This document shows positions 21,932 to 23,869 of a stretch of DNA of 64,000 nt, in pieces; position 1 is the stretch's first letter, and the number at the start of each line of letters is the position of its first letter. The DNA is from Haloferax sulfurifontis ATCC BAA-897 (GTDB taxonomy: Archaea > Halobacteriota > Halobacteria > Halobacteriales > Haloferacaceae): assembly GCF_000337835.1 (NCBI RefSeq), contig NZ_AOLM01000011.1, forward strand, positions 62,001 through 126,000, given 5' to 3'. The position numbers and the translations under genes are program-made. The notes beneath the pieces were generated by a model. That model was not told the DNA's origin, did no database searches, and saw only the letters and a list, made by a program, of their open reading frames with translations.

Positions 21932-23389
21932 ATGAGTGCAGGGGTCAGCATTTCCTCGATGTCTACGTACGCGATACTCGGCTGTGGGAGCGTCGGGCAC
22001 GCGGTCGCCGAGGAACTGACAGACGAGGGAAAAGACGTCCTCATCCTCGACAAGGACGAAAGCCGCGTCGAAGCCCTGCGCGACCAGGACTTGAACGCGC
22101 AGACCACGAACATCGCCGACCCGGAGCTCGCCGACGCCGTCACCGGACGCGACGTGATTCTCATCCTCTCGTCGGACGTCGAGGCCAACAAGGCCGCCGT
22201 CTCGACCATCCGCGACCGCGACGAAGACCAGTTCATCGTCGTCCGCGCCTCCGACCCCGTCTCAGAGGACGAACTGACGAAGCTCGGTGCCGACGTGGTC
22301 ATCAACCCCTCCGAGGTCATCGCCGACTCCGCGCTCCGAAGCGTCGAGTCCGGCGAGCTCGAATACAAGGCCCGCCAACTGGCCGACATCCTGCGCGACA
22401 CCGACCACGGGATGGCCATCCTCACCCACGACAACCCCGACCCCGACTCGCTCGCCTCGGCGGTCGCCCTCCAAGCCATCGCCCGCGAGTACGACGTCGA
22501 GGCCGACATCCTCTACTCGGGAGACATGGGCCACCAGGAGAACCGGGCGTTCGTGAACATCCTCGGCATCGAACTCACCCCGCGGAGCGACTCGAAACCG
22601 CTCGAAGAGTACGGCGCGGTCGCGCTCGTCGACCACATGAAGTCGGGGATGCCCGACCTCGGCGACGCCGACATCACGGTCTTTATCGACCACTTCGAAC
22701 CCGACGACGGCATCGACGCCCGCTTTACCGACGTGCGGCCGAACGTCTCGTCGACCTCGACGATTCTCACGAAGTACATCCAGGAGTTCGACCTCAGCCC
22801 GTCGCAGGCGGTCGCCACGGCGCTTCTCTACGGCATCCGCGCCGAGACGCTCGACTTCAAACGCGACACGACGCCCGCCGACCTGACCGCGGCGGCGTAC
22901 CTCTATCCCTTCGCCGACCACGACACGCTGGAGAAAGTCGAGTCGCCGTCGATGTCGCCGGAGACGCTGGACGTGCTCGCCGAGGCCATCCAGAACCGCG
23001 ACGTGCAGGGCTCGCATCTCGTCTCGAACGCGGGGTTCATCCGCGACCGCGACGCGCTGACGCAGGCGGCCCAGCACCTCCTCAACCTCGAGGGCATCAC
23101 CACGACGGCCGTCTTCGGCATCGCCGACGACACCATCTACCTCGCGGCGCGGTCGAAGGACATCCGCATGAACATCGGGAAGATTCTGAGCGACGCCTTC
23201 ACCGGCATCGGCGAGGCCGGCGGCCACTCCACGCAGGGCTCCGTCGAGATTCCGCTCGGTATCTTCACGGGCATCGAGTCCAACGACGACAACCGCGACA
23301 CGCTCCTCCAACTCACCGAGGAGGCGGTAAAGCGCAAGCTCTTCCGTGCGATGGGCGTCGAGGGCGGCGAGAGCGGAAACGGGAGTTAG
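21932..23389 (+). CDS. RCK(TrkA-N)-DHH-DHHA1 fusion phosphoesterase
   Basis: A 485-residue soluble fusion. Residues ~11-130 are a Rossmann RCK/TrkA-N domain (YAILGCGSVGHAVAEELT, GxGxxG; then LILDKDESR). Residues ~155-320 are a DHH phosphoesterase domain (LTHDNPDPDSLASAVAL; AVALVDHMKSG; VFIDHFEPD). The C-terminus is DHHA1 with GEAGGHSTQGS. DHH-DHHA1 proteins degrade oligoribonucleotides, pAp or cyclic di-AMP. The usual DHH triplet reads DHF here. A TTAAG at 21899-21903 sits ~30 bases before ATG 21932, supporting this start over one at 21959. A nucleotide-sensing nuclease or c-di-AMP phosphodiesterase is an inference. Confidence 0.85.
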   Translation: MSAGVSISSMSTYAILGCGSVGHAVAEELTDEGKDVLILDKDESRVEALRDQDLNAQTTNIADPELADAVTGRDVILILSSDVEANKAAVSTIRDRDEDQFIVVRASDPVSEDELTKLGADVVINPSEVIADSALRSVESGELEYKARQLADILRDTDHGMAILTHDNPDPDSLASAVALQAIAREYDVEADILYSGDMGHQENRAFVNILGIELTPRSDSKPLEEYGAVALVDHMKSGMPDLGDADITVFIDHFEPDDGIDARFTDVRPNVSSTSTILTKYIQEFDLSPSQAVATALLYGIRAETLDFKRDTTPADLTAAAYLYPFADHDTLEKVESPSMSPETLDVLAEAIQNRDVQGSHLVSNAGFIRDRDALTQAAQHLLNLEGITTTAVFGIADDTIYLAARSKDIRMNIGKILSDAFTGIGEAGGHSTQGSVEIPLGIFTGIESNDDNRDTLLQLTEEAVKRKLFRAMGVEGGESGNGS

Positions 23390-23393
23390 AACG

Positions 23394-23687
23394 TCAGACG
23401 ACCAGCGACTCTTCGTCTTCTTCTGGGTTCTTCAGGCGCTCGATGACGTCGTTGATGAGGATGACGTCGCCGACGGCGCGGACCCATCGATACGGGATGA
23501 GAACGCCCTTTCCGGGTTCGATCTGGTTGCGGAACAGTTCGTCGTTCAGCGCCGTCAGCGCGAGGCCGGTGACCGTCTCGTGGTCCAAGTCGAGGCGGAC
23601 GTCTTCGACCTCGCCGACGAACACACCGTTGTTCGAGTAGACCTCCCGGCCTACGAGCGTCGTAATCTCTTCGGGCGTCCCGTCCAT
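23394..23687 (-). CDS. PRC-barrel domain protein
   Basis: A 97-residue protein consisting of one PRC-barrel: ITTLVGREVYSNNGVFVGEVEDVRLDLDHETVTGLAL ... GVLIPYRWVRAVGDVILIN. The tail is acidic. Archaeal PRC-barrel proteins have roles in RNA processing and cell division (CdpB-type) among others; which applies here is unknown. A TTAATT at 23711-23716 is ~26 bases upstream of ATG 23687, so that start is preferred over an ATG four codons earlier. It ends 4 bases from the convergent RCK-DHH stop. Confidence 0.8.
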   Translation of the reverse strand: MDGTPEEITTLVGREVYSNNGVFVGEVEDVRLDLDHETVTGLALTALNDELFRNQIEPGKGVLIPYRWVRAVGDVILINDVIERLKNPEEDEESLVV

Positions 23688-23869
23688 ATCCGCCAACATG
23701 GGATGCCGGGTCTTAATTGTTCGTAGCCCGCGAGTCGGGGCGCAGACGCGCGGCAGACGGGCGTCCGACGCCGGCGGGAAATCACCGGACGGAGACGTGT
23801 TGTTCAGTTGAGAAGACGGGGCGAGTCGCCGCGAACGACGACCGAGACAGGAGCCGAGTCGGGGGCGCG

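What the first reader, a model, noticed from the sequence alone, without database searches (positions are those of the whole stretch)
21932..23389. RCK-DHH-DHHA1 fusion with DHF in place of the DHH triplet
An RCK domain (which binds NAD(H) or nucleotides in potassium channels) is joined to a DHH-DHHA1 phosphoesterase, the type that degrades cyclic di-AMP in bacteria and some archaea. Cyclic di-AMP often controls RCK domains of potassium transporters, so a sensor and an eraser on one chain is a striking layout. The eponymous motif reads IDHF, so activity may be altered.
Basis: partly seen in the sequence, partly recalled or inferred. Interest (0 to 1): 0.6.

Follow-up and report, generated by a model that had tools for sequence, protein, structure and literature searches.

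The report
Sensor protein with decayed phosphodiesterase site
Salt-loving archaea all carry this old fusion of a nucleotide sensor to an enzyme of the type that destroys the signal molecule cyclic di-AMP, but in them alone the enzyme's active site has worn away while the sensor is untouched, and a sister protein in almost all of them has kept the enzyme and worn away the sensor.

Summary
Window 21932-23389 (+) encodes one 485-aa RCK_N-DHH-DHHA1 protein whose motif III reads IDHF. The fusion itself is old and known (arCOG01566); a full-length copy is in 194/194 haloarchaeal genomes sampled and 178/197 across the phylum. DHF is not a local oddity. All 56 non-haloarchaeal copies and all 30 copies of the haloarchaeal paralogue B keep DHH. 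Haloarchaeal copies mostly have Y, F, L, A, C, S, D or N at that place, Glu for the motif IV Asp (all but one), an eroding motif I and a changed GGH loop. None of 92 copies keeps the full ancestral site, while the RCK nucleotide-binding residues (G17, G19, G22, D40) are invariant. B is the mirror image: intact active site, eroded RCK pocket. Best reading: the ancestral sensor-eraser was duplicated in the haloarchaeal stem and split. This copy is probably a pseudo-phosphodiesterase that binds nucleotides and signals; B or C is the better candidate for the missing haloarchaeal c-di-AMP phosphodiesterase. The published prediction lists all three alike. No activity or ligand has been shown.

The parts
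21932..23389 (+). RCK_N-DHH-DHHA1 protein (485 aa), here called paralogue A; probable orthologue of Hfx. volcanii HVO_1690
   Evidence: identity with HVO_1690 inferred from the published trio of candidates, the PRC-domain neighbour HVO_1691 and the distance to dacZ
21968..22309 (+). RCK_N / TrkA_N domain, residues 13-126
   Evidence: Pfam PF02254 E 6e-21
21980..22051 (+). Nucleotide-binding signature of the RCK domain: G17-x-G19-x-x-G22 and D40
   Evidence: invariant in 52/52 and 40/40 haloarchaeal orthologues
22415..22837 (+). DHH domain, residues 162-302
   Evidence: Pfam PF01368 E 1.6e-12; GdpP-like fold
22427..22447 (+). Motif I, H166-D-N-P-D170-P-D172; here intact, eroding in many haloarchaeal orthologues
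22688..22696 (+). Motif III triplet D253-H254-F255 (DHF in place of DHH)
   Evidence: comparison
22844..22846 (+). Motif IV metal-ligand position, Asp changed to Glu (E305, YGIRAET)
   Evidence: Glu in 111/111, 51/52 dereplicated and 40/40 of an unseeded sample; Asp in 52/56 outgroup copies
23021..23326 (+). DHHA1 domain, residues 364-465, with retained R407, R412 and H432
   Evidence: Pfam PF02272 E 9.9e-6; residues conserved
23219..23227 (+). Motif VII loop, residues 430-432 (GGH here; AGH, VGH, KGH or RGH in most haloarchaeal orthologues)

Best explanation
Paralogue A is a haloarchaeal pseudo-phosphodiesterase: a nucleotide receptor made from an old RCK-DHH-DHHA1 phosphoesterase. Shown by sequence comparison: the RCK_N nucleotide pocket and the DHHA1 ligand-binding residues (R407, R412, H432) are kept under strong constraint, while the catalytic centre has lost the second His of DHH, changed the motif IV Asp to Glu and is drifting at the motif I His and first Asp. 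Also shown: a haloarchaea-specific paralogue (B) has kept the complete catalytic centre and eroded its RCK pocket. Inferred: the ancestral fusion was duplicated in the haloarchaeal stem and the two jobs were divided. A binds an adenine nucleotide (ATP/ADP or NAD(H)) at RCK, and probably a di-adenylate (c-di-AMP or pApA) or short oligonucleotide between DHH and DHHA1, without hydrolysing it or only very slowly. The long helix 126-156 between RCK and DHH would couple the two sites. Its output, perhaps through hetero-oligomers with B or another partner, is not known.
For: Position 255 is His in 56/56 non-haloarchaeal orthologues and 30/30 B copies. In 52 dereplicated haloarchaeal A copies it is Y 25, F 17, H 3, A 3, C 2, L 1, R 1; in 40 more taken by genome without motif seeding, Y 13, L 9, F 6, H 4, D 3, S 2, and one each of C, N, A. 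It varies more than 88% of the DHH-DHHA1 columns there and needs at least 20 changes on a tree built without the motif columns. No copy keeps the full eight-residue set HDDDDHHD (0/52, 0/40; loss of Asp at 305 alone excludes it), against 50/56 outgroup and 30/30 B. Three of the four unseeded copies that do have DHH have lost the motif I His. The matching His mutation abolished an archaeal pApase (PMC8268124). RCK residues G17, G19, G22, D40 are invariant in all A copies of both sets, but B has mostly lost D40 (D in 5 of 30), R105 and G119. B is in 186/188 haloarchaea and was not found in ten non-haloarchaeal genomes that were checked. All 194 haloarchaeal genomes hold at least two homologues, while most other genomes hold one. 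A haloarchaeal A+B clade is not rejected (p-AU 0.893). A and B lie head to head in two genomes (G030, G048).
Against: No activity or binding data exist. Most metal ligands persist: D172, D234 and D253 are invariant in the 52 dereplicated copies (D234 is Asn in one of the 40 others) and H254 is kept in most, so two metals may still bind and slow or altered catalysis is possible. The first-His mutants of NrnA (H103A, residual activity) and of PyapApase (H78A, near-normal) show that this site tolerates some losses. Glu in motif IV also occurs in a few outgroup copies and in standalone paralogues that keep DHH, so it need not be disabling on its own. Prune proteins have DHR in motif III. The free tree did not put B next to haloarchaeal A. 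A-B adjacency was seen in two genomes only.
Confidence: 0.6

Rival explanations
1. A is an active phosphoesterase with altered chemistry: an aromatic residue replaces the second His and Glu replaces the motif IV Asp, tuning it to another substrate or to slow turnover gated by RCK.
For: In the dereplicated set 42/52 copies have Tyr or Phe at 255, a preferred replacement rather than random drift; D172, D253, R412 and H432 are invariant there. Glu in motif IV occurs in DHH-keeping relatives. First-His mutants keep activity in two enzymes.
Against: In the unseeded sample only 19/40 are aromatic and L, D, S, N, A and C occur; motif I His is Q, K or S in 9/40 and the first motif I Asp is E or G in 10/40. 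H79A abolished PyapApase. The motif II His that might compensate as in prune is itself variable.
Confidence: 0.25
2. A is an ordinary c-di-AMP phosphodiesterase, as predicted in the literature for the trio HVO_0756, HVO_0990 and HVO_1690.
For: Published prediction (PMC8305020 table 9i citing PMID 32095817); nearest fold is the GdpP catalytic domain; dacZ is present in 97/97 haloarchaea, so a degrading enzyme is needed.
Against: The catalytic site has decayed in this clade alone, while B and C in the same genome keep DHH, Asp in motif IV and GGH. The archaeal homologue PyapApase, with an intact site, does not hydrolyse c-di-AMP or pApA (PMC8268124), so kinship alone does not give the substrate.
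Confidence: 0.1
3. A serves another process (DNA repair, cell division or oxidative stress) as a scaffold, with no nucleotide-signal role for its DHH-DHHA1 part.
For: HVO_1690 rises under hypochlorite and is listed under DNA recombination/repair (PMC10294847); its conserved neighbour is a PRC-barrel gene (66/80 loci).
Against: The repair label is an annotation, not a test; DHHA1 ligand residues stay conserved; the PRC gene is convergent, so not co-transcribed.
Confidence: 0.05

Closest known systems
arCOG01566 archaeal RCK/Rossmann-DHH-DHHA1 proteins (A. fulgidus RCK part solved as 3llv, 'exopolyphosphatase-related protein'; the species is my knowledge)
   Same: Same three-domain order over the full length, 41-50% identical to copies outside haloarchaea
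   Different: Outside haloarchaea the catalytic centre is intact (DHH in 56/56); in haloarchaea it has decayed
GdpP / DhhP / NrnA (Pde2, Rv2837c) DHH-DHHA1 phosphodiesterases
   Same: Same fold, metal-Asp framework and DHHA1 ligand residues
   Different: Second His of DHH replaced, motif IV Asp to Glu; the sensor is RCK_N instead of the PAS and degenerate GGDEF parts of GdpP (my knowledge)
KtrA / TrkA / CpaA RCK proteins that bind c-di-AMP
   Same: RCK_N fold with the GxGxxG...D nucleotide motif
   Different: No RCK_C domain, which is where c-di-AMP binds in those proteins (my knowledge)
Haloarchaeal RecJ relatives with an inactivated DHH domain (arCOG00428)
   Same: Another haloarchaeal DHH protein that lost its active site (PMC3307487)
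   Different: Different family (RecJ, replication), no RCK domain

Membership tests
arCOG01566-type RCK-DHH-DHHA1 proteins | RCK_N, DHH and DHHA1 domains in this order on one chain | tested here: met
arCOG01566-type RCK-DHH-DHHA1 proteins | Full-length homology to other archaeal members | tested here: met
   matches in 178/197 phylum genomes, nearly all full-length; groups with them in the DHH-DHHA1 tree, SH-aLRT 89. arCOG assignment itself not computed.
Active GdpP/DhhP/NrnA-type phosphoesterases | DHH triplet in motif III | tested here: not met
   DHF; DHH in only 3/52 and 4/40 haloarchaeal orthologues
Active GdpP/DhhP/NrnA-type phosphoesterases | Asp at the motif IV metal position | tested here: not met
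   Glu305
Active GdpP/DhhP/NrnA-type phosphoesterases | Motif I His/Asp/Asp and motif II Asp metal ligands | tested here: met
   present in this copy; eroding in orthologues
Active GdpP/DhhP/NrnA-type phosphoesterases | Hydrolysis of c-di-AMP, pApA or nanoRNA | not testable with these tools
   needs purified protein
c-di-AMP-binding RCK proteins (KtrA/CpaA type) | RCK_C (TrkA_C) domain | tested here: not met
   no PF02080 match up to E 0.1; the PF02080 search found 24 matches elsewhere in the genome, none at this gene
Nucleotide-binding RCK_N domains | GxGxxG and acidic residue at the end of the second strand | tested here: met
   G17, G19, G22, D40 invariant; the ligand itself is not testable here

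The most novel reading that the evidence does not exclude
An ancestral one-chain sensor-eraser of a nucleotide second messenger was duplicated at the origin of haloarchaea and split by reciprocal decay: A kept the RCK sensor and became a catalytically dead receptor, B kept the active phosphodiesterase and lost its sensor, and A now controls B (for instance in a hetero-oligomer) to set c-di-AMP levels.
Probability: 0.3. Interest if true: 0.75.

Novelty: new variant of a known kind. Interest (0 to 1): 0.5.

Why it matters
Haloferax makes c-di-AMP with an essential cyclase (DacZ), yet the degrading enzyme has not been identified (PMC8305020, PMC8646023). Three proteins were proposed as candidates without distinction. 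This comparison ranks them: A is the least likely enzyme, B and C keep complete sites. It also gives a natural case of a sensor and its enzyme coming apart after duplication, testable in a genetically tractable archaeon with three single-gene deletions and a c-di-AMP measurement.

Tried and rejected
(1) Sequencing error or local mutation as the source of DHF: rejected, other Haloferax and further genera have it. (2) Compensation by a motif II His as in prune: the position after the motif II Asp is H in 34/52 but Y, P, V, Q and others in the rest, with no match to the residue at 255. (3) Operon with c-di-AMP or potassium genes: none found. dacZ lies about 23 kb away in this genome; by my reading of the coordinates the A-dacZ spacing is roughly 10-55 kb in several Haloferacaceae and far larger in some others, which looks like regional synteny. 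Among 20 neighbourhoods, 19 of them outside haloarchaea, a CBS-M50 protease (up to 12) and Thg1 (9) recur. (4) Seed bias: one of the six search peptides for the 80 contigs contained IDHF, so 40 further genes were taken from whole genomes; the decay was stronger there. (5) A first frame-picking rule gave wrong frames for some B genes and was replaced. He et al. 2020 (PMID 32095817) and two reviews are not in the library, so their exact wording was not read.

Full report
OBSERVATION. The ORF at 21932-23389 (+) encodes 485 aa with RCK_N (TrkA_N) at 13-126, DHH at 162-302 and DHHA1 at 364-465. Motif III is FIDHFEP. The AlphaFold2 model from 59 sequences has mean pLDDT 87.6 but pTM 0.59, so the single folds are trusted and domain packing is not. 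Foldseek puts the GdpP catalytic domain first (5xt3, E 9.6e-18), followed by a RecJ-like protein, TM1595, DhhP, NrnA and Rv2837c. TM-scores over the whole chain are low (about 0.33-0.44 for these) because the RCK part and the domain angle are not matched. A profile search aligns GdpP motif I, DHH and motif IV to the same columns.

THE FUSION IS OLD. Copies occur in 194 of 194 haloarchaeal genomes sampled, those listed at about 70% identity or more, with 57% in one deep lineage, and in 178 of 197 genomes across the phylum at about 41-50% identity outside haloarchaea. [quoted passage not shown] The RCK part of one 'exopolyphosphatase-related protein' is solved (3llv; from A. fulgidus, by my knowledge).

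THE CATALYTIC CENTRE HAS DECAYED IN HALOARCHAEA ONLY. The B. subtilis NrnA site is H20, D24, D26, D80, H103, H104, D156; H104, the second His of DHH, does not bind the metal and is free to contact the substrate (PMC5593865). I map these by motif to H166, D170, D172, D234, H254, F255 and E305. Outside haloarchaea the second His is kept in 56/56, and the whole set HDDDDHHD in 50/56. In 111 haloarchaeal copies the triplets are DHY 53, DHF 47, DHH 4, DHA 3, and one each of DHC, DHS, DHL and DRC. Because one search peptide contained IDHF, I took 40 further genes from whole genomes: DHY 13, DHL 9, DHF 6, DHH 4, DHD 3, DHS 2, DHC, DHN and DHA 1 each; motif I His was lost in 9 and the first motif I Asp in 10; Glu305 in all 40. 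No haloarchaeal copy in the dereplicated set (52) or in this sample (40) has the complete ancestral site; the two sets may share a few species. In an archaeal pApase, mutating the second His removed all activity, while mutating the first had almost no effect (PMC8268124).

WHAT IS KEPT. G17, G19, G22 and D40 of the RCK pocket are invariant in 52/52 and 40/40. In the DHHA1 part, R407, R412 and H432 are kept in 50/52, 52/52 and 52/52 and together in 39/40. Mean pairwise identity within haloarchaeal A is RCK 73%, DHH 72%, DHHA1 82%; in outgroup copies the RCK part is the least conserved (39% against 55-57%). So the protein is under strong constraint, but not for catalysis as in its relatives.

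THE MIRROR-IMAGE PARALOGUE. The genome has two more NrnA-like proteins: B (L002:925-2427, -) with a weak RCK and intact DHH, Asp and GGH, and C (L003:880-2073, -) without RCK and with an intact site. B occurs in 186/188 haloarchaea. All 30 B copies keep the catalytic set, but D40 is mostly Thr, R105 is mostly Tyr, G119 is lost and GxGxxG is broken in several. In some genomes of one genus the match covers only the DHH-DHHA1 part. In ten non-haloarchaeal genomes checked for a second homologue, the hits were A-like and, in most, a distant C-like protein of about 30% identity; no B was seen (C-likeness was judged from length and identity, not by a tree). The free tree placed B outside A, but a tree holding haloarchaeal A and B together scored better and was not rejected (p-AU 0.893). 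A duplication in the haloarchaeal stem followed by division of labour is therefore the simplest reading, not a proven one.

CONTEXT. dacZ is present in 97/97 haloarchaea and lies about 23 kb away here. The convergent neighbour is a PRC-barrel gene, with a homologue in 66 of 80 contigs; in Hfx. volcanii the cell-division regulator CdrS binds upstream of the PRC gene HVO_1691, of dacZ and of ftsZ1 (PMC8406309). HVO_1690 and HVO_0990 rise under hypochlorite (PMC10294847). The identity of this gene with HVO_1690 is inferred from these neighbours, not checked by sequence. The degrading enzyme is unknown; HVO_0756, HVO_0990 and HVO_1690 are listed as predictions (PMC8305020; PMC8646023).

MECHANISM AND LIMITS. 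The best reading is a nucleotide receptor: RCK_N binds an adenine nucleotide, DHHA1 with the remaining DHH frame may hold a di-adenylate, and the 31-residue helix 126-156 couples them. Catalysis is probably absent or very slow. Nothing here measures binding or turnover; slow or altered catalysis remains possible because most metal ligands persist. c-di-AMP as the ligand is inference.

Noticed in passing
L002:925-2427 (-): Paralogue B: intact DHH catalytic set but eroded RCK pocket, apparently haloarchaea-specific; with C it is a better candidate than A for the missing haloarchaeal c-di-AMP phosphodiesterase. A CBS-domain gene (L002:99-932, -) lies next to it.
   Followed up: partly
G030:C1:602519-605634 and G048:C26:6265-9262: Paralogues A and B lie head to head (about 170 and 59 bp between matches) in two genomes of one genus; no other adjacency was noticed.
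   Followed up: no
L225-L233: A further standalone DHH-DHHA1 clade in haloarchaea keeps DHH but has ET or ER in motif IV, so Glu at that place recurs in a DHH-keeping family.
   Followed up: partly
window 23394-23726 (-): Convergent PRC-barrel gene with homologues next to A in 66/80 haloarchaeal contigs; its Hfx. volcanii counterpart (by inference HVO_1691) is a target of the cell-division regulator CdrS. Whether it is CdpB1 was not checked.
   Followed up: partly
L136 (G021): In the deepest haloarchaeal lineage sampled, the site is almost gone (motif I YDSPDPD, IDNR, GIRTAT) and no B was found at 1e-110.
   Followed up: no
L239, L243-L245, L248-L253: Outside haloarchaea, A often lies near a CBS-domain M50 membrane protease and a Thg1-family guanylyltransferase.
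   Followed up: partly
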